Below are positions 1,721 to 43,489 of a stretch of DNA of 64,000 nucleotides, piece after piece. The stretch comes from Nereocystis luetkeana (lineage: Eukaryota; Sar; Phaeophyceae; Laminariales; Laminariaceae): the NCBI GenBank assembly GCA_031213475.1, contig JARUPZ010000020.1:5009858-5073857 (forward strand), written 5' to 3'. The notes under the pieces were generated by a model, which searched no databases, had not been told where the DNA came from, and saw only the letters and a program-made list of their open reading frames with translations. The number at the start of each line of letters is the position of its first letter. Position 1 is the stretch's first letter. The translations under genes and the position numbers were made by a program.

Positions 1721-1833
1721 TTACGGGGGACTACAGTAAATAGGACCTACGGTGCACACAAAAACCTACCAGGTATATATTTACTCACTTTTGCTAACCA
1801 TGTTTGATCCCATTTACTATGTTCCCCCCGTAA
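1721..1833 (+). mobile_element. MITE family A copy carrying TACCAGGTA
   Basis: Terminal inverted repeats TTACGGGGGAC and its complement. The length of 113 fits the 105-bp family unit plus a 7-bp CCAGGTA at 1767-1775 and one extra C in the right arm. It sits in the large intron of the gene at 796-2497. Confidence 0.8.
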
Positions 1834-7734: not shown

Positions 7735-7857
7735 TTACGGAGGACCACATAGTAAATACCTGGTAGGACCTATGGCACAGACGAAACCTCCATATATATT
7801 CAACTATCAGGTACCCTGGTATATTTTTACGAACAATATTTGGTCCTATTTACTATG
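7735..7857 (+). mobile_element. MITE family A copy with TACCTGGTA insertion
   Basis: Left TIR TTACGGAGGACCA. The family's AGTAAATAGGACC is interrupted as AGTAAATACCTGGTAGGACC, with the 9-mer at 7757-7765. The right TIR decays after TTTACTATG. Confidence 0.75.
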
Positions 7858-7859
7858 TA

Positions 7860-9080
7860 TGTACTGGTACGTAATACCACCGCATTTTTGTCTCCCAGCG
7901 ATACAGACAGTGCAGCAATAATATACACATCATAAGGCATTCCAATATATATGCTACCACTCTGTCCCTACAAAAAACGAACGTTATCATACTACTATTC
8001 TATCAAAACGTTTCCAAAAAAAGAGAGTGAGTTCAGACAGTGGTGCGATCATTTTTCAGCGCTCGATGTTCCCAGGACGGGAAGAATAAAAGACAATTGC
8101 TAACACCGAACAAAAACATAAAAAAAGCGTATACCAGTAATAGAGTAGACAAGCCGAAAGTTGGCACGGAAGGGAGGTAGACTTGGTGCATGGGTTTCTT
8201 TTTGTTTCCGGGTTTTCTTCTTTCGGGAAAGTTATGAGTGATCCATGTTGAAGATCGTGCCGCACATCGTAGGATGGCAAGATAAATAATAATGATGATG
8301 TACGAACGGTCCCTCTACAACGAATACAAGGGCAGCAGTAGACAGAGTGGCACCAGGCACCAGGTAAAAGACACACACACGTTAAAGCTCACGTTCATGC
8401 TTGCACAACAAGCGTTTACTCGCTGGGTGAGGCGGTCTATGTCTCTCTGTAGCATCGCTATAACTGTCTACCATCTCTATTATAGTACGGTGTTAAAAAA
8501 AACAAGGTCGGAACGCTCTGTATCCCCGGACAGGAGGCAGTACCGCAACGACTGTATACATACGTTTTGCGGGCGATCGACGAAAAGAAGCGTCCGCGGT
8601 TTGGAGTAAAAGCAGTTAGTTGACTTTTGCGGCGACGGCTGGCTCTCTGTGTCGTTACTATGCAGTACTGTATGCCCTTTTCATAACCTTATTATTTGTA
8701 GTGTGTCTGGTGCTGCAGTAGTAACTGTACCAAGAAGAGTGTATAAAGTAACTGCTGTTGGACGAGTAGCAAATAAATACTCGTTGCGCGCTCCTCAGGT
8801 GTACGCAATGCGAAAGAAAGCTGTGGCAAAGTCATGCCAAAAGTAAAGACGAAGCACGTATGTATGCTGTATACCTGGTATATTCTTAGGCGCTGCCATC
8901 CGACAATGTGCAGCACAATGAGCTCCAACGGTGATCACTCCAAACATTCCTGAAAGAAGAAACCCCCGAAAAACAAAGGAAACCTATATGGACGAGGTCC
9001 AGCTACCTTCTATGCCTACTTCCCGCTATGTTGTATATACGAAGTATATATATAAATGTATATCCGATGTGAATTCAGTA
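7860..9080. other. No supported gene; two repeat C copies
   Basis: Repeat C occurs inverted at about 8220-8283 and direct at about 8890-8970, a gap of about 600 bp. A TACCTGGTA lies near 8871. No coding signal. Confidence 0.55.
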
Positions 9081-9821: not shown

Positions 9822-10025
9822 ATCACGGGGGGCCATAGTAATCAGGACCCATCCCATATACAAAAACCTATATATTCCAATATTTTTATCAACCCTTTTA
9901 GACACCACAGTCCCATTTTGGGGACAAACCACTCGATTTTCAAGTAGTTTGTCCCCAAAACGGGACTGCGGTCCTGTAAGGGTTGAGAGTATTTGGTCCT
10001 GATTACTACTGTACGTTCCCCGGGA
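9822..10025 (+). mobile_element. MITE family A copy split by a family B element
   Basis: Left end TATCACGGGGGGCCATAG and right end TACGTTCCCCGGGAATA, both diverged. It is interrupted at 9893-9983 by family B. Confidence 0.7.
9893..9983. mobile_element. MITE family B copy nested in family A
   Basis: Well-preserved foldback: CCCTTTTAGACACCACAG on the left, GGGACTGCGGTCCTGTAAGG on the right, flanked by TCAA and TTGA. Confidence 0.8.
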
Positions 10026-11469: not shown

Positions 11470-12625
11470 ACCGTTCCTACTCCTGATAGAAACATCTCCA
11501 ACAGTTGGCGTTCATTACGTTGTTTCCATATATTACATGGAAACGTTTCGCTAATATTCTCCCCTTCCTGTTTGGCCGCTGTGGCCACCATCTATCTCCT
11601 AGGATCGCGATCGTTTTCTCGCTTCTATCTAGAGTACCAAACTCCTCCACGTCACATTCGTCTATTTCCCTCATCTCCTCTTCTAACACATCCCGTTCCT
11701 CCTTGTACATTTCACATTCTCCTACTATGTGAGTTCTACTCTCTATTGCTTTGCCACACGGGCACATCTGTGCGTCTATTTCCTCCTCCTCCTCCCGGCT
11801 ATTGGTATACCTCTTTCTTCTTTCTGGCAGGTCCAGGTCACCTAAACGAAAGCTCAGCTTCAGCGTTGTGTCGCGAAGCCCATTGGGCCGCGCAGATACG
11901 TTTTCATTCCTATCCCTTCCCTCAATCTCCCGTATATCTCTAGGTGTTTTTCTGATCCCACCTTGTTTCTTAGCGCTACTCGTAGCCTTTCCCTTTTTTC
12001 TATCCTTCTATTTCTGCCTTGTCTTTCCCAAACTTCCTGGCGGACATCAACTCTTCTTGGTTTCCCCCCTACATTCTTCCAAACTTTCTCAACTACGCTA
12101 CGTTTCCAGCTCGCCTTTTGTTGCTTCTCCCATACAGCTCCATCAGCTACGGCTGACAACGTCTTTTTTGGCATGTTTCTTACTTTATATTGCCCTTTCA
12201 ACTTTCTCACATTTCTGCTCGTAATAGTGTATTACTAGTCGTTTTCGAGCATCTTAGGAGTTTTTTAGCTGCTGCCATCTGTTCTGTTTCCAACTGTTTT
12301 CCCAGCTTCGCACTCCCTCCCAATATTTTTCCTCTACATTCTAGATTTGGGGCTATCACATTCATCAGGATGCATCTCTCAATCCTACTGCAGTGTCCAC
12401 CTGCGAGTCTGTCAGGATCGCATCCTTCTTGTCTACGCGCGCTTTACTCTTTCTCATTACTTTTGCTTTATGTGTATCCCAAGAGCAGTATTTTGATATA
12501 TCTTCGCCAAGGTACGTATACTGGTCTACGATCGGCAATTCATCTTCTCCCCACTTCCAACTGAACTTTGCCGGGCTCAGGTACGGTATTTTCCGTCCGA
12601 CGATGTACAGGAGAAGCTTCAAGGT
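11470..12625 (-). mobile_element. 5'-truncated, frameshifted non-LTR (LINE) reverse transcriptase remnant
   Basis: Reading the minus strand from 12622: a segment with FSWKWGEDELPIVDQYTYLG and SKYCSWDTHKAKV matches the end of a LINE reverse transcriptase (the YLG thumb-side motif). Near 12350 the frame shifts to ILMNVIAPNLEC and LETEQMAAAKKLLRC, then to a basic region (VWEKQQKASWKRSVVEKVWK, RIEKRERLRVALRNKVGSEK). The remnant ends with a C-terminal zinc-knuckle-like CPCGKAIESRTHIVGECEMY and ILGDRWWP at 11477-11767. At least two frameshifts and a stop near 12190 break it, so it is dead. It starts abruptly near 12625 with no catalytic FADD box, as expected for 5' truncation by target-primed insertion. 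The family assignment rests on general LINE architecture. Confidence 0.8.
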
Positions 12626-20699: not shown

Positions 20700-22290
20700 T
20701 GAATACCAGTAACATAGATGGATGTATGCTGTAATACGAAGTTGTTCATCGGGAGTCAGTGGTGGCCTGTTTCCTTCCTGCCTCAAGTGGCGATGCTCCA
20801 AACCAAACCAAAACTATACATGGTAGGTGACATCATATATATGAATCAGAACCAGTGCCAGTTACCAACCAATACCCAGCACCCTGCACTTCCACTCCAG
20901 AGATGAAAACACTTGCCTTGTGACCGTGGAGTGCGTTACGGCGATGACTTATATAATAGTATCAACCACAAAAACAGTTGGTCCAATGTAAGGACAAAAA
21001 CAGCCTGGGAGCCTGGGTTATGCCAGTAACATAATACGCAAACGACAGCAGTGAAACGTGATCATATTAATACTACGGATGTACGGATGTATGTAATCTA
21101 GTTGCCAATTTCAGCTGCAGTTTCGTTTTTTTAGAACTGCACCGCTTCTGCTGTTGTACGAAATCTGAAGGTGTATGGTACCTGGTATCGTATAAGACTC
21201 TGTAATTCCAAGTAATTTGTACCTGCGGTCCTAAAAAGAACAAACAAGTAAACTCCCTTCTGGAAACAAGAGCAGAAGAGCAGTAAAGCTGGTGGCCCTC
21301 AGCCTGCTTCCGACTACCAGGTACCAGGTATATAATACGTATTTCGATTTTTGTTGTTCATAATAAATGTACTACTCGTATCAATAAATAGTCGAGTGCT
21401 GTGATAATAACCGATGCAACCGTCGACGGGGTCGCAGAGGATGACCCGCCGCGACCGCGACCGCTGTCGTCGACTGTCGACAGCGCAGTGCAGCACCAGA
21501 GGCACCAGAGGCAGCAGTATGAACCCATACCCTGTACTTTTGTATGCTTTGTGTCCGTTGTCGGTTGTTCCTGTTTTTCCTCCCACTCTGCTTCCTCCCT
21601 GCTGCCTATTTTGCAGGCTATGATACACCCGCGACGTATTCTCCGTCTGACCCTGCATACCAGGGCGTAAAATAGGTGACAAAACGTCGCGGTGGTGCAC
21701 TTTTTCCCCGTGAAATCCGTTTTTTCGCTCTTCACCACGAGCCGTACGCGTGGTGCGGCTCGCCCGCACCACGCCTTGTTTTGTGTGCCTTTTTGCGTGC
21801 CGCACCGAAAAGAACAGTGCGGCGTTTTTATTTTTGGGGTGGGGGGGGGGGGTTAATTTCGCCGCAGGCAAATTTTTTCAAGGAAGGGTGTTTGTTCCTC
21901 GCAAAAAAATGTCTCCCCGTTGCCGTTTCACGTGTTCATTGGTCGTCATTCATAAAATAGTGCCACTCGATTTGATAATTTCGATACGTTCAAGGCCAGC
22001 CGGCGGCACCATGTCTAAGCGCGTACTTCGTATGACGCACATTTTGATCGTGTATACCTGGTGCACATACCTGGCACATACCAGGTATTGAAAAAACGAA
22101 AAACGACCTACGGCGGCCGCTCCGGGGGGCCTCTGGGTGCCCTCAGGGGGCGTACCTCGCTACGGCTTAGCGCACCACGAAATGGACGCCGATTACACGC
22201 CCTAGTTGGAACCGAAATCTCGATACGGAGCACACATTGTATGTTGTACGATTGCGTCCTCCCGAATTTGTCCCTGAACCGTCGGTATAC
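20700..22290. other. No supported gene
   Basis: Contains tandem TACCAGGTACCAGGTA near 21316, a TACCAGGTA near 22078 and a G run at about 21840. Frames here are short and unbiased. Confidence 0.5.
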
Positions 22291-23535: not shown

Positions 23536-23632
23536 TTACTGGGGACCATAGTAAATACCTGGTAGGACCTCCCGTATACCCAAAAACCTATATATTTACC
23601 TGTTTTTACCAACAATATTTGGTCCTATTTAC
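23536..23632 (+). mobile_element. MITE family A copy, right end lost, with TACCTGGTA insertion
   Basis: TTACTGGGGACCATAG, with the AGTAAATAGGACC stretch split by the 9-mer at 23556-23564. The right arm stops after GGTCCTATTTAC. Confidence 0.75.
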
Positions 23633-23664
23633 ATACCATACTTTTTTCTTTTGTTTCGATCACT

Positions 23665-24905: not shown

Positions 24906-25072
24906 CCCTTTTAGAACTGCAATCCGGTTTTGGGAACAAAGCACTCAAATTCTACCAGGTACATAGTTTGTCCCCGAAGCGAGACGTCAGTCCCAGGGCG
25001 GCTGCTGCGGTCAGTCCCGTTTTGGGGACAAACCACTCAAATTCCAAATAGTTTTGTCCCCGAGACTGGAAC
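24906..25072. mobile_element. Two adjacent MITE family B copies
   Basis: First copy about 24906-24997, with TACCAGGTA (24954-24962) in its loop where other copies read TCTAAGTAG. A second partial copy spans about 25010-25072. Confidence 0.7.
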
Positions 25073-26662: not shown

Positions 26663-27103
26663 GTGCAGCAGTGCCTATCATATCTTGAGCATCGTGGACG
26701 ATATCGGGCTGCTATTATGTCTACCAGCTACAGACAGTCGTAGCAGATGTGTAGTGGGGGTGCAGGCGACGAGAATGACGCAAGTATAATACCGCTGTAA
26801 AAAGATTGATGGTTGTGCCATTTTTAAATTACGTTGTATATACACTGGTATCATACATCGGTACGAACTGAGTGACGCTGGTTGAAGTTGACAGGGTTGA
26901 ACCCGCGCGAGCTAAACAGCTGCGGTAGACGGGTGCCCGAAATAAGAGCGTCCGGCAGCAGTCGTAAGTAGAAGAGGATACGGACTCGAGAACCGTAAGC
27001 TGGAGTACTTGGCACGGAAACTTGGAACCTCCGGGTTTCTCGCCCGCCTTATCCCTCTTGACGAGCTTGTGAGCCGTTCGAGCAGAAACATATCCCGATT
27101 TAA

Positions 27104-27192
27104 CCCCTTTAGAACCGCAGTCCCGTTTGGGGACAAAACTACTTGAAATTTGACTGGTTTGTCCCCAGAACTGGACTGCGGTTCTAAAAGGG
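27104..27192. mobile_element. MITE family B copy with intact TTAA site
   Basis: 89 bp between TTAA at 27100-27103 and TTAA at 27193-27196. Ends CCCCTTTAGAACCGCAG and CTGCGGTTCTAAAAGGG. Confidence 0.9.
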
Positions 27193-27199
27193 TTAAGAG

Positions 27200-30278: not shown

Positions 30279-30723
30279 TTACGTGGTTTTCTACAACTTC
30301 TTGACCAGTAAACGCGACTTGGTCCAGCTTCGTACGGTGCTCGTTCCCAGGCGGCGGGGGTTGTGGTTAGGGTGGCATGGCGCAGGGTTTATAGTGAGGT
30401 ACATATTACCAGGTATACCGGTATACCTGGTACCAGTATGTATTGTGTGTACCGCTTTTCTGTCGCTGGCCGGTATATATATATCAATTGTTTTTTTAGC
30501 TACAGCAGTACATGCATATCGGTTTCCTGTCGCTGGTCGTTTTGTCGATTCTTTTTTTGGCATGTATATCTGTATATCTAGGCTTTGAAAATTGCTATGG
30601 TTGGTGGGCCTCTCTTTTTTTCCAGCTCCACTAAACGTCATGGGAGTTCACCTTGTGTCGCCCCACGTCCAAACACCTCTTTTCCGAAGGAGAACTTTGT
30701 AAATTTCAACCATGTGTGGAAGT

Positions 30724-32360: not shown

Positions 32361-32646
32361 CCGAGTTCTCCCGGTTCTCGGAAAGATTCTCAGATGTGAT
32401 GCGTGCGACGCCTGGTGTATCTTCCACGGGTACATACGTCTGTGATGACCGTTCTACGGACCTTTCCCAGAATCTGTCCTCGACGAGTGTCATGAGTAAC
32501 GACGCAACAAGTTCGTGAGGCATAGGCGCAACATGGACCCTCCCGTGCTGCTGCTGGCCGCTCACACTGCTCGTAGATGGTTGATAGTACTAAATTTTAC
32601 CAACCAGTGTTCTGGTCGCTGTCTAGGGCATCCTCAGAGAGGTCAA

Positions 32647-32735
32647 CCCTTTTAGTGCCGCGGTCCCTTTTAGGGGACAAATTGCTTGGAAATTGACTGG
32701 TTTGTCCCCGAAACGGGACTGCGGTAGTAAAAGGG
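32647..32735. mobile_element. MITE family B copy
   Basis: 89 bp. CCCTTTTAGTGCCGCGG to CTGCGGTAGTAAAAGGG, flanked by TCAA (32643-32646) and TTAA (32736-32739). Confidence 0.85.
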
Positions 32736-32739
32736 TTAA

Positions 32740-33785: not shown

Positions 33786-33905
33786 TTACGGGGGACCATT
33801 CTTGATACCAACTACCTGGTAGGACCTACGGTGCACACAAAAACCTATATATTTCCCTATTTTCCACCAACAATAGTTGGTCCTATTTGCTACGGTCCCC
33901 CGTAA
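33786..33905 (+). mobile_element. MITE family A copy with TACCTGGTA insertion
   Basis: TTACGGGGGACCATT to TACGGTCCCCCGTAA between TA at 33784-33785 and TA at 33906-33907. The 9-mer lies at 33813-33821, directly before GGACC. Confidence 0.85.
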
Positions 33906-34106: not shown

Positions 34107-34321
34107 TTGACCCCTTTTCACAGTATTCATGGTGCTGCAGTCCTGTTTAGGGGACGTTTTGGGGGCAATCCATTCAAATTTCAATCAGTTTCACAAACTG
34201 GAAGTACTAATACTGCATTACTACTAGAAGGGTTGAAGGTCGCTGTGCGGGCGCAAACTGCGAAACCCCTGCCTGCGGGGGCAGAGTCGCCACGCAGCTG
34301 TGCTTAATAAATTGCGCTCTT

Positions 34322-34519
34322 GTACCAGGTACCTGGCACCTGATAGGCTGTATGCACCAGGCATAGTATTGCGTAGGTGGCATAGCTTGTACCAGGTACC
34401 TGGTACCTGATAGGCTGTATACACCAGGCATAGTATTGCGTAGGTGGCATAGCTTGTACCAGGTACCTGGTACCTGATAGGCTGTATACACCAGGCATAG
34501 TATTGCGTAGGTGGCATAG
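34322..34519. repeat. 67-bp tandem repeat, three units, built around the TACCWGGTA motif
   Basis: Units start at 34322, 34389 and 34456. Each opens GTACCAGGTACCTGG and continues CTGATAGGCTGTAT, CCAGGCATAGTATTGCG, TAGGTGGCATAGCTT. Unit 1 differs at two positions and the last unit is slightly cut. Five exact 9-mers fall in the array. Confidence 0.95.
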
Positions 34520-35828: not shown

Positions 35829-36135
35829 AGTGGTCCCTCTATAGTGCGGATTGAGTAGTGCCGACTGCCCGCTGTGCATGTCTCTGTGGAATCGCTTGGC
35901 ACAGATGGGCTTAACCCTTTTAGAACCGCAGTCCCGTTTTGGGGACAAACCACTCCAACTTCAAGTAGTTTGTCCCCAAAATGGGACTGCGGTTCTAAAG
36001 GGGTTAACTTAACCTACCAGGTATGTGGCAGTGTGCGGAGTGAATAGTGCCGGTTGGCGCTATATATATAGTGCCGGTATTTCATTGGCTGGCGCATACC
36101 ATATGGGCACTATATAGGCATTATAGAGGGGCCGG
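35829..36135 (+). mobile_element. MITE family C, second copy, interrupted by family B
   Basis: GGTCCCTCTATAGTGCGG to CATTATAGAGGGGCC. The shared CGCTTGGCACAGATGGG is followed by the TTAA-flanked family B element at 35915-36003, then by TACCAGGTA near 36013. Confidence 0.6.
35915..36003. mobile_element. MITE family B copy with intact TTAA site
   Basis: 89 bp between TTAA at 35911-35914 and 36004-36007; arms nearly perfect, so probably recent. Confidence 0.9.
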
Positions 36136-36758: not shown

Positions 36759-36877
36759 TTTCGGGGGACCATAGTAAATAGGACCAAATATTGTTAGTAA
36801 AAATAGTGAAATATATACCTGGTAGGTTTTTGTGTACCTGGTATACCGTAGGTTTTATTTAATATGGTCCCCCGTAA
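36759..36877 (-). mobile_element. MITE family A copy with two TACCTGGTA insertions
   Basis: 119 bp between TA at 36757-36758 and TA at 36878-36879, exactly the 105-bp unit plus 14. The 9-mers lie at 36816-36824 (in ATATAGGTTTTTG) and 36835-36843 (in GTGTATACCGTAGG). Removing one CCTGGTA from each restores the family sequence. Confidence 0.9.
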
Positions 36878-37462
36878 TAGGGCTATGTAGGTGCTGAGGT
36901 AGTAACAGGAACGCGGTTTCAGGCTGGAGTTCTTGTTTTTGGACAGGGATGCCTCCTTTGCTAACTTTGGCATCACAGCTCCGGAAGTTGTTGCTTTCCC
37001 TGCAAGTAACACCCTGGCGTTATAGGTCCTCCGCGCAGTAGGTATCATATCATGTACCAGGTATGCTGTCTAGGATGAAATGGCATACGAGGTATGACGT
37101 GACGGGCAGGGCAGCCGGCCATTCCATTTCACGCGAGCGAGGCCTAACGGGTTGCCTATTTATGATATACCCCGAGCGGCGCCTTTTTTCTGCGCGTCGT
37201 GTGAGCGATCGCCGCTGCGTGGTAATACTCGTTTTCAGTCCGTTGTTTGCTGGGGTCGCGGCGGTCTATTCCTTCGGCGTCTACGAGATATCTCTTTACT
37301 TGCATCTCACTTGACAAGATACCAAGATACCACTGCCGTATCTCCATGGTGATATCTCGACATGCCAAGTACGAGATATCTGTATTTATCCTCTACGAAC
37401 GTTAGCAACAGCAGCAGAAGAACCAGCGCGTGGCGCCACCACGTGGAGGAGATTTATGTTAA

Positions 37463-37552
37463 CCCTTTTAGGACTGCAGTCCCGTTGCTGGGGACAAACC
37501 AGTCAAATTCTAAGTAGTTTGTCCCCACAACGGGACTGCAGTCCTATACGGG
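37463..37552. mobile_element. MITE family B, reference copy (piggyBac-like signature)
   Basis: 90 bp between TTAA at 37459-37462 and 37553-37556. Ends CCCTTTTAGGACTGCAG and CTGCAGTCCTATACGGG; the whole element folds into one hairpin. TTAA targets with CCC...GGG ends are the hallmark of the piggyBac superfamily, so these are probably its non-autonomous derivatives. Confidence 0.9.
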
Positions 37553-37559
37553 TTAAGTC

Positions 37560-41009: not shown

Positions 41010-41122
41010 TTACGGGGGACCATATTAAAATAGGACCTACGGTACATGCAAAGACCTACCAGGTATATATTTCGCTATTTTTTCTAACAATATTTGGTCC
41101 TATTTAGTATGGTCCCCCGTAG
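41010..41122 (+). mobile_element. MITE family A copy with TACCAGGTA insertion
   Basis: 113 bp = 105 + 7 (CCAGGTA in CCTATATATTT) + one extra A in the left arm. TTACGGGGGACCATATT to TATGGTCCCCCGTAG, followed by TA. Confidence 0.85.
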
Positions 41123-41129
41123 TAGTATA

Positions 41130-42780
41130 CCTGGTACAAACTACCTGGTTTGTATCTTCTTCGAGATGGTGCTATTTCGAGATAGTTTGGTGTATTATGT
41201 ATGACCCACGGGTGGGTAGGTGGGTGCCTCCAGCACCTCCTTGACTCAGAGCCAGTCCCTTTTGAGGAATATTGAATATTAATAGATCGGCAACGGCGCA
41301 TCCAGGCAGCGGTCGACAAGGCTATGAGTAAGGCGTGCCTCGGCTGGACTTGACGGCTGCTTTTTTTTCCGTGTGGTTGGGTCACAAAAGTAGGTCAACC
41401 AAATGGCTAACGTAGTCTTCGTTATTAACAAACCCAGCGAGCGAGCCACAAAGCCAGCCAGGTGCAAAGAGTACAGAACTCCGTCCGCAAACTGCCGCGC
41501 ATTATTGTGATGACCACTGCTGTACAGTAATAACCTAGCCAACTACTATTTTTAGTAGTCTAATAACTTCGTCAGCGACTTGAAATCAGCCAACTCACAA
41601 CCCCGTCTAATTCGACCTCTTACGCTCTCGATTCCGACAGCACACCGGACAGTAGGCTTTTCTTGCCGTGCTTTCAACCCACAAAACACACGGGGCACCA
41701 GGTACCAGGTCAAAAGTGTTCTACAGATGTATTCTATTAATATGTACGTACCACAAATGTGACCACGGGTACTTCCGTTTCGAGGCGGTCCGCACATTTT
41801 TATTTTTATTTTTTCCCAGGAAATTCAAAGCGTGTGGCACCCCCGCGCTCGGGTCGGATATATGTGGCATGTGTGTAGCCTACAGCGGTAGGTAAGGAAG
41901 GGTGGAGTTGGGTTGATGGTATGTGTAGTGATTCGCGAGAAATAATCAATACTGCGGAGAACAAAACAATACAAAAAAACTTGCGCGCGAGAACCGTACT
42001 TGGTATGTGTGTCGTACGTGTGTCAGATAATAGTTGGTGTTTGGGGCCTGCTCTATTATTAAGCATAGGTATGTTTTTGTGTGCCACTATGTAGTGCTAT
42101 AATCGCCCCTCTATGGACAGAAGGCGTTTTCCCACATTATCATGATTTATAGTACTAAGCGAATACCCTGTGGTACTCTGTATACCAATTATAGCATTCC
42201 GGTACAAAAAAATACTTGAGGTTTTCCGTATAATACATACCAGGTACCAGGTACCTGGTAGGTATAATATGCCAGTCAAGCATTCCGGTATGCTGTGTAT
42301 CCAGGTAAATATCTCCGGTACGCCCGTATAATGTTCCGATTTACCTCCTGGTGCCTGGTATCGGACGTGTCCGTTTTTTTCGTGTATATATATTTTTTCT
42401 TCGTCTTTTTGGTATTTTTCGATATTTTTTTCAACTGAAAAGCGCAGCTCGATGGAGGCCGACGCGTGGAGGGGATGCACCGAACCCAATCATGACGTGG
42501 TGGGACGGTTCTGAAGGGACGGAGGGAAGGGAGGGAACGTGCGCTGCTACGATGAACGGCAGCAGTGGTGTGGCATGTGACCTGTGATCCCCTTGGCCTG
42601 TGGCCTGTGATCCCCTTGGCGCTTGACATCGAGCATGCCGACTTGCGACGCCGACTTGAAACCTATTATTATTGCGAGGAGTAGAGTGTTTGTTTTAGTG
42701 GTGTACGAAGTATATTATTAATTTTGTTTTAAAGGTGTACCATATCGTACCTGGTATTAATTTTTGTTTTATTGGTGTAT
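41130..42780. other. No supported gene; triple TACCWGGTA array at 42238
   Basis: At 42238-42260 three motifs are chained through shared TA dinucleotides. Frames in this stretch are unbiased. Confidence 0.5.
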
Positions 42781-42825
42781 CATATTATTACGGGGGACCA
42801 TAGTTAATAGGACCAAATATTGTTA

Positions 42826-42930
42826 TTACGGGGGACCATAGTTAATAGGACCTATGGTATACATAAAAACCTATATATTTAACCATTTTTACCATCAATA
42901 TTTGGTCTTATCAACTATGGTCCCCCGTAA
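42826..42930 (+). mobile_element. Nested MITE family A copy 1 (exactly 105 bp)
   Basis: Inserted in the outer copy's ATTGTTAGTAAAA, with TA at 42824-42825 duplicated at 42931-42932. It defines the element as TTACGGGGG...CCCCCGTAA with a TA target site. Confidence 0.95.
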
Positions 42931-42993
42931 TAGTAAAAATGGGTAAATAAACAGGATTTTATGTACAACATACCTGGTAGGTCCTATTAACTA

Positions 42994-43098
42994 TTACGGG
43001 GGACCATAGTTAATAGGACCAAATATTGTTAGTAAAAATGGTTAAATATATAGGTTTTTATGTGTACCATAGGTCCTATTAACTATGGTCCCCCGTAA
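42994..43098 (-). mobile_element. Nested MITE family A copy 2 (exactly 105 bp)
   Basis: Inserted in the outer copy's right terminal repeat (AACTATGG) with TA duplicated at 42992-42993 and 43099-43100. Confidence 0.95.
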
Positions 43099-43489
43099 TA
43101 TGATCCCCCGTAATAGTAGATGTTGCTGTCGTTGGCATGGCTGTCTGTTTCGTGAACCCGTTCTCTCCTAAATGCCGACTTTTGATGTCGACTTAACTGA
43201 TACCTGGTATGAACTACCAGTCGACTTATAAAGTACCAAGTAGTGAGTGAATGAAGTGTTGATGCCGTTCTGCTGTTGTCGTTGGTGCTGTTGATTGTCT
43301 TTTCCTTCAAGACGTTGTCTACGCATCGGCATCCAGCATCCCAACACACCCAGGGTTAGGGTTCCTACTCCGCACCGTGCTGATTATCTGCCCTATATAT
43401 TGAGAGATACCTGGTACGAGCTGTCCCGTCTGGGACTATTAATAGTGTACGCACCCCATGTTGTGTACGACTTAGAGATACTATTAATA

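What the first reader, a model, noticed from the sequence alone, without database searches (positions are those of the whole stretch)
36759..36877. TACCWGGTA is a 7-bp insertion (CCWGGTA) into TA dinucleotides
Seen directly: this MITE family A copy is 119 bp, against 105 bp for copies at 42826, 42994 and 43997. It differs by two CCTGGTA insertions, each between a TA and a new TA (36816-36824, 36835-36843). The outer copy at 42788 is 112 bp after removing nested elements, and also has one CCTGGTA (42971-42979). Further family A copies carry the 9-mer at 1767, 7757, 23556, 33813 and 41057, at several different positions of the element. So the palindrome is gained after the MITE inserts, always at TA. 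Inference: either excision footprints of a TA-targeting (Tc1/mariner-like) element with CC...GG ends, or an ultra-short mobile unit. Family A itself ends in TT...AA, so it is not the source.
Basis: seen in the sequence. Interest (0 to 1): 0.92.

Follow-up and report, generated by a model that had tools for sequence, protein, structure and literature searches.

The report
Dense 7-bp scars at TA sites
A stretch of what looks like eukaryotic DNA carries dozens of copies of one 7-base insertion, nearly always at a TA step, which look like the scars left each time a jumping gene cut itself out, although no such jumping gene was found in the stretch.

Summary
TACCWGGTA occurs 57 times in 64 kb against 0.61 expected; the centre is 27 A and 30 T, with 3 C/G forms. 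Repeat copies show a clean 7-bp gain (CCWGGTA) at a TA: eight units at four positions of MITE family A and one in an unrelated TTAA-type MITE; eight of these nine have a clean plain-TA paralogue. CCWGG outside the 9-mer is not enriched (135 against 150). Sites show a symmetrical target preference, including TA 7 bp outward, and a minor class flanked by CA or TG on both sides, Sleeping Beauty's favourite non-TA sites too (PMC5801840, passages). Best reading: excision footprints of a TA-targeting Tc1/mariner-like transposon whose ends begin CCWGG and which leaves 5-nt overhangs that pair around one A:A or T:T mismatch. Not shown: the source element. None was found in the window (about 87 scars to 0 elements) and the genome could not be searched (12 of 12 attempts unanswered). 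That ratio, the uniform scar and the 5-nt stagger are the odd parts.

The parts
36759..36877 (+). MITE family A copy (TTACGGGGGACC-type ends, TA on both sides) carrying two CCTGGTA units
   Evidence: 119 bp, 105 bp without the two units; flanks
36816..36824 (.). TACCTGGTA at aaatataTA|ggtttt of family A; same position filled at 1767 and 41057
36835..36843 (.). TACCTGGTA at gtgTA|taccg of family A
42971..42979 (.). TACCTGGTA in the outer nested family A copy (42788), at acaTA|ggtcc
   Evidence: 112 bp, 105 bp without the unit; empty site
1767..1775 (.). TACCAGGTA in family A copy 1721-1833
7757..7765 (.). TACCTGGTA in family A copy 7735-7868, at ggtccTA|tttacta (read on the other strand)
23556..23564 (.). 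TACCTGGTA in family A copy 23536-23652, same element position as 7757
33813..33821 (.). TACCTGGTA in family A copy 33786-33905, same element position as 7757; sequence on one side diverged
41057..41065 (.). TACCAGGTA in family A copy 41010-41122
24953..24961 (.). TACCAGGTA inside an unrelated TTAA-type MITE; the paralogue at 37459-37544 has the plain TA (AAATTCTAAGTAG)
42238..42260 (.). Three units in tandem (centres A, A, T), period 7
34319..34519 (+). 67-bp tandem repeat, 3 copies, whose unit contains tandem TACCWGG units
30407..30432 (.). TACCAGGTATACCGGTATACCTGGTA: two units symmetric about TACCGGTA
42994..43098 (+). Family A copy without the unit (empty-site reference, 105 bp)

Best explanation
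TACCWGGTA is the excision footprint of a DNA transposon that inserts at TA. The element, with ends 5'-TA-CCWGG...CCWGG-TA-3', inserts at a TA and duplicates it. On leaving, the non-transferred strand is cut 5 nt inside each end, so both flanks keep a 3' overhang CCWGG. The two overhangs pair through four G:C pairs around one A:A or T:T mismatch, the mismatch is repaired to A or T, and a uniform TACC(A/T)GGTA remains. This is the logic of the Sleeping Beauty footprint with a 5-nt instead of a 3-nt overhang. Shown: a precise 7-bp gain at TA, the A/T centre, the target preference. Inferred: that a longer element came and went, the 5-nt stagger, the Tc1/mariner kinship.
For: 57 copies against 0.61 expected. 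Clean plain-TA paralogues for 8 of the 57 sites, in two unrelated MITE families. Centre 27 A / 30 T with 3 C/G forms, as an A:A or T:T mismatch would give. Symmetrical target preference: TA 7 bp outward in 45 of 114 flanks against 10.4; 13 of 58 against 4.1 after dropping family A sites, one copy of the 67-bp repeat, tandem neighbours and CCWGG-like flanks, with T next to the TA in 35 of 58 against 19.9. CA...CA plus TG...TG forms 8 against about 1.0, six if the 67-bp repeat counts once; CA/TG are also Sleeping Beauty's favourite non-TA sites (PMC5801840, passages). Adjacent units differ in centre base in 6 of 10 listed pairs outside the 67-bp repeat, so slippage cannot explain all tandems. 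Loss of just the central base (TACCGGTA) 8 against 1.1, as if the mismatch were sometimes removed. SB and mariner cut 3 nt inside, and the SB footprint equals the overhang (PMC7827188, passages). SB footprints are reported mostly canonical in some cell types (PMC3770610, passages). The Mos1 5' end reads CCAGGTGTAC (PMC3419177, passages).
Against: No donor: the 33 CCWGG with a TA on one side only show no shared extension by eye, and 21 of them have TG or CA on the other side, as decayed units would. A scan for TA-bounded inverted ends (first four letters exact, up to 12 kb, best 25 CC-starting pairs listed) gave no CCWGG pair that is not built from 9-mer copies or their decayed forms. About 87 scars to 0 elements is extreme. 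Footprints of related elements are often variable (PMC1925063, PMC3770610, passages), whereas here one form dominates. Known mariner staggers are 2-3 nt (PMC2642840, passages). The CA/TG class is larger here (six or eight beside 57) than in SB, where non-TA sites of all kinds are about 1.4%. The tandem pair evidence includes pairs with the same centre (4 of 10 outside the repeat), and some listed neighbours may be chance.
Confidence: 0.6

Rival explanations
1. A stand-alone ultra-short insertion: a transposase-like or repair enzyme cuts at TA and leaves CCWGGTA directly, without a long element ever having been there, for example by joining in bare transposon-end fragments or by a fixed fill-in.
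For: Very uniform product, no donor found in 64 kb, roughly 2% of the 3861 TA steps marked; tandem growth in steps of 7.
Against: I know of no enzyme that does this, and five base pairs are too few for specific transposase binding (recalled knowledge). The A/T-only centre is explained by overhang pairing without any new mechanism.
Confidence: 0.15
2. Programmed or near-complete excision: elements like ciliate internal eliminated sequences, or a domesticated excisionase, remove every copy, so the assembled genome shows only scars.
For: Extreme scar to element ratio and uniform scar. Paramecium eliminated sequences are a precedent; that they are TA-bounded and Tc1/mariner-related is recalled (PMC3464196 seen only as a search listing with its abstract start).
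Against: Paramecium elimination leaves a single TA, not a 5-bp scar (recalled). The window looks like gene-poor nuclear DNA with MITEs and microsatellites. No germline sequence available.
Confidence: 0.08
3. The 9-mer is an old part of the repeats or a selected binding motif, spread with MITEs or kept by function, not an insertion.
For: Palindromic motif; same position and same centre base in three copies at two MITE positions, and AU tests do not reject common descent.
Against: 13 of 20 family A rows carry no exact 9-mer, four positions are hit, a second MITE family is hit, and 41 of 49 clusters lie outside family A after one copy of the 67-bp repeat is dropped; for most of these one search found no convincing paralogue in the window.
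Confidence: 0.05
4. Replication slippage or minisatellite growth of TACCWGG units.
For: Tandem period-7 arrays (42238-42260, 21315-21330) and a 67-bp tandem repeat; of four exact tandem pairs (repeat counted once) two have the same centre; viral contigs L032 and L109 show a 14-bp TACCAGGTAAATGC minisatellite.
Against: Most copies are solitary; adjacent units with different centres are common; isolated gains at TA in MITEs cannot arise by slippage.
Confidence: 0.03

Closest known systems
Sleeping Beauty / Tc1-type excision footprint, TAC(A/T)GTA (footprint letters recalled; stagger from PMC7827188, passages)
   Same: TA target and 2-bp duplication, odd palindrome with an A/T centre, footprint equal to the 3' overhang, CA/TG as second-choice targets (PMC5801840, passages).
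   Different: 5-bp CCWGG instead of 3-bp CWG; far denser than any footprint I know of; no donor element seen.
mariner (Mos1 group), ends CCAGGTGTAC or TCAGGTGTAC (PMC3419177, passages)
   Same: The first five letters of one Mos1 end, CCAGG, and the TA target.
   Different: Known mariner stagger is 2-3 nt (PMC2642840, passages); no shared extension beyond CCWGG is seen here (by eye); no transposase domain in the 91 ORFs scanned.
Stowaway MITE footprints in grasses (PMC1925063, passages)
   Different: The grass scars are of several forms and some sites still hold elements; here one form and no element.
Paramecium internal eliminated sequences (PMC3464196, search listing with abstract start only)
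   Same: TA-bounded, Tc1/mariner-related, total removal (recalled).
   Different: Leave one TA and no 5-bp scar (recalled).

Membership tests
Excision footprint of a TA-targeting (Tc1/mariner-like) transposon | Short insertion at TA with the TA duplicated, relative to an empty site | tested here: met
   8 of 57 sites have a clean plain-TA paralogue: seven in family A and one in the TTAA-type MITE; a ninth (33813) on one side only
Excision footprint of a TA-targeting (Tc1/mariner-like) transposon | Scar letters equal the terminal letters of an identified element | tested here: inconclusive
   No element with CCWGG ends found in the 64-kb window; genome not searchable
Excision footprint of a TA-targeting (Tc1/mariner-like) transposon | Symmetrical target preference around TA, CA/TG as minor targets | tested here: met
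   SB comparison from passages of PMC5801840
Excision footprint of a TA-targeting (Tc1/mariner-like) transposon | Overhang of 2-3 nt | tested here: not met
   The scar is 5 bp; CCATGG between TAs (the 3+3 fill-in product of CCA ends) is seen once, 0.07 expected
Excision footprint of a TA-targeting (Tc1/mariner-like) transposon | Canonical plus some non-canonical scars | tested here: inconclusive
   TACCGGTA 8 against 1.1; loss of one C or G 13 against 6.2, largest of 30 simulations 12
Footprint of MITE family A | Scar derived from TTACGGGGG ends | tested here: not met
   Family A ends are TTACGGGGGACC...GGTCCCCCGTAA
Mos1-group mariner | DD34D transposase and 28-bp ends | not tested
   No transposase domain in 91 selected window ORFs, but the source element need not lie in the window
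Paramecium-type eliminated sequences | Elements present in germline, absent in soma | not testable with these tools
   One assembly window, no reads

The most novel reading that the evidence does not exclude
A genome marked at roughly 2% of its TA steps by one uniform 7-bp scar, made either by near-total (perhaps programmed) removal of a transposon with a 5-nt self-complementary overhang, or by an enzyme that inserts a 7-bp unit with no longer element at all; each scar makes a new, better target (TA-n5-TA), so scars seed tandem scars.
Probability: 0.22. Interest if true: 0.88.

Novelty: new variant of a known kind. Interest (0 to 1): 0.64.

Why it matters
Known footprints are, as far as I know, sparse and often variable. 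Here one clean scar occurs about once per 1.1 kb in the window. If this holds genome-wide it would be a fossil record of transposon excision, a readout of the stagger and target preference of a transposase known only by its scars, and a source of frequent 7-bp (frame-shifting) insertions. It would also give a natural test of how a single mismatched overhang is repaired, since the centre base would record each outcome.

Tried and rejected
Rejected: chance; a general excess of CCWGG (135 outside the 9-mer against 150 expected in all); slippage as the sole cause; family A as source; a 3-nt stagger with CCA ends, which predicts TACCATGGTA, seen once. Not found: longer elements with CCWGG ends in the window.

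Mended on re-check: I first took one-letter decay to fall mainly on the TA letters. That is true of transitions only (excess 18.4 on TA letters against 3.9 on CC/GG). With transversions (TA letters 3 seen, 5.4 expected; CC/GG 13 seen, 4.6 expected) the totals are alike, about 16 and 12.

Led nowhere: Pfam on 9 + 82 selected window ORFs (131 passed the filter; two weak single-member matches); Rfam at gathering scores (none); a protein search with the ORF 11480-12007, 538 hits, source 'ena' and no name among the 120 listed; related loci of that ORF in viral contigs (none confirmed); exact patterns of the two MITE families in viral and prokaryote genome contigs (0 hits each; the tool says records near the window's genome may be left out). 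Of the 129 loci counted, six exceed the window's density: five are short stretches of 1.0-2.4 kb with 2-5 copies (contexts of L018 and L089 not looked at) and L109 is a tandem array. Literature searches for the 9-mers hit 119 and 109 papers; the 20 and 10 titles listed concern other subjects. Six topical searches (listings of 20, 12, 12, 1, 1 and 2 papers) showed nothing describing this scar. That is not proof that it is unpublished. Passages of PMC3271037 held nothing on footprints.

Full report
What is there. The window appears eukaryotic (GC 0.50, microsatellites, long C runs, MITEs, and only 13 listed ORFs of 200 aa or more, largely of low complexity); the organism was not identified. TACCWGGTA is present 57 times, 0.61 expected from 100 shuffles with a maximum of 3. 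Words with one mismatch total 46 against 15.7 expected, with two mismatches 135 against 149. The centre is A 27 and T 30 times and C or G three times. Among all TA-N5-TA words the other strong ones (GGACC, GTTAA, GTAAA) are letters of family A, so there is one dominant unit. CCWGG outside the 9-mer is not in excess (135 against 150).

It is an insertion. Family A is a MITE with ends TTACGGGGGACC; 8 of the 17 copies printed have TA directly on both sides. Twenty rows were aligned, among them partial or composite ones (9091, 9823, 23536, 42788). Seven rows carry an exact unit, eight units in all, at four positions: aaatataTA|gg (1767, 36816, 41057), gtgTA|tacc (36835), TA|ggtcc (42971) and ggtccTA|ttta (7757, 23556, 33813). 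Removing 7 bp per unit brings 119 to 105 and 112 to 105; the other carriers keep further indels (106, 106, 110, 113, 127 bp). Of 57 flank-joined queries, 21 had some hit across the junction. I accept eight as clean empty sites: seven in family A and 24953 in the TTAA-type MITE, where the copy at 37459-37544 reads AAATTCTAAGTAG. At 33813 only one side matches the family. The remaining hits are weak or consist of the units themselves. The copy at 7735 also holds what look like two decayed units (TACCAGGGTACCTGATA on the element strand).

Independence. The two positions filled three times each need three changes on the family A tree (18 rows), but no branch reaches both support marks and a single origin is not rejected (AU p 0.086 and 0.146). 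The centre base is the same within each triple. So inheritance of a scar by MITE transposition remains possible there. Separate events are clearest for the different positions, the second MITE family and the many sites without a paralogue.

Target preference. Outward from the TA of the 57 units, letters 6-7 are TA in 45 of 114 flanks (10.4 expected from all TA in the window) and letter 6 is T in 72 (30 expected). Part of this is family A and tandem units. With only flanks more than two mismatches from CCWGG it is 20 of 75 against about 5.3. With family A sites also dropped, tandem clusters collapsed and one copy of the 67-bp repeat dropped, it is 13 of 58 against 4.1 (p 2e-4 before correction for 15 positions), and T directly after TA is 35 of 58 against 19.9; TA at letter 4 is also raised (13 against 5.2). 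So the target is symmetrical and AT-rich, and the preference is weaker than the raw logo suggests. Units like CCWGG (up to one mismatch) followed by TA flank the 9-mer in 15 of 114 flanks, against 158 of 7718 flanks of all TA. Each insertion creates a TA 7 bp from the next, which the logo favours, so tandem growth may follow from target preference (inference). Of the 15 adjacent pairs listed, five belong to the 34319-34519 repeat; of the other ten, six differ in centre base. Some of these neighbours may be chance, and of four exact pairs (repeat counted once) two differ.

CA/TG class. CCWGG flanked by CA on both sides or TG on both sides is seen 8 times against about 1.0; three of the eight are copies of one tandem repeat and one (63814) lies in a GC-rich repetitive stretch; other dinucleotide duplications are at chance. 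This supports a 2-bp duplication of the target rather than a TA carried by the unit, and matches the preference of Sleeping Beauty among non-TA sites, though there non-TA sites are only about 1.4% (PMC5801840, passages). Double decay of TA is an alternative.

How it most likely works. Shown: gain of 7 bp at TA, one dominant product, A/T centre, target preference. Inferred: an element with CCWGG ends inserts at TA, leaves with a 5-nt stagger, and its overhangs anneal around one mismatch. SB and mariner transposases cut 3 nt inside and leave 3-nt 3' overhangs, and the SB footprint is identical to the overhang (PMC7827188, passages); the SB footprint letters TAC(A/T)GTA are recalled. In the same geometry a CCWGG overhang gives exactly TACC(A/T)GGTA. 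TACCGGTA, the form without the mismatched base, is raised (8 against 1.1, largest of 30 simulations 4), loss of a C or G less so (13 against 6.2, largest 12). That is suggestive, not proof.

What does not fit. No donor was found: 33 CCWGG have TA on one side only, 21 of these have TG or CA on the other side and look like decayed units, and by eye none share an extension. TA-bounded inverted ends starting CCWGG, among the pairs listed, are built from 9-mer copies or decayed ones. Taking 57 exact plus about 30 excess one-mismatch forms, there are some 87 scars to no element. Footprints elsewhere are often more variable (PMC1925063, PMC3770610, passages), although SB scars are mostly canonical in some cells (PMC3770610), and known mariner staggers are shorter (PMC2642840, passages). 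One-letter decay is alike in amount on TA and CC/GG letters (excess about 16 and 12) but differs in kind: nearly all transitions on TA, more transversions on CC/GG. I have no explanation for that.

Scope. Everything rests on one 64-kb window. No genome search could be made (genome search did not complete). The viral and prokaryote collections hold no exact match to the two MITE patterns tried. Among the 129 viral loci fetched by pattern, no locus over 4 kb reaches the window's density except a tandem array. A claim of novelty beyond 'new variant' would need the donor search and strain comparison listed under next steps.

Noticed in passing
window, e.g. 9890-9986, 27100-27196, 32643-32739, 35911-36007, 37460-37556: A second MITE family of about 95 bp with near-palindromic ends TTAACCC.TTTAGAACCGC...GCGGTTCTAAAAGGGTTAA, probably TTAA-targeting (piggyBac-like by recalled resemblance); 11 and 12 copies in the repeat finder families D10 and D12.
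   Followed up: partly
window 42788-43113: Nested family A MITEs: one copy split by two others, each followed by a TA duplication.
   Followed up: yes
window 11480-12007 (-): ORF with 538 protein relatives at E <= 0.001, no name among the 120 listed; looks like the end of a non-LTR retrotransposon protein, by eye only.
   Followed up: partly
window, 8 places incl. 22925, 23122, 27516, 30416, 43751: TACCGGTA is enriched (8 against 1.1), perhaps the scar without its central base.
   Followed up: partly
window 34319-34519: 67-bp tandem repeat, 3 copies, containing tandem TACCWGG units and a CACCAGGCA.
   Followed up: partly
L109 2348-2566, L032 14-134: 14-bp minisatellite TACCAGGTAAATGC in two viral contigs; tandem, not dispersed.
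   Followed up: partly
window 1-64000: One-letter variants of the 9-mer: nearly only transitions at the outer TA letters, more transversions at the inner CC/GG letters.
   Followed up: partly
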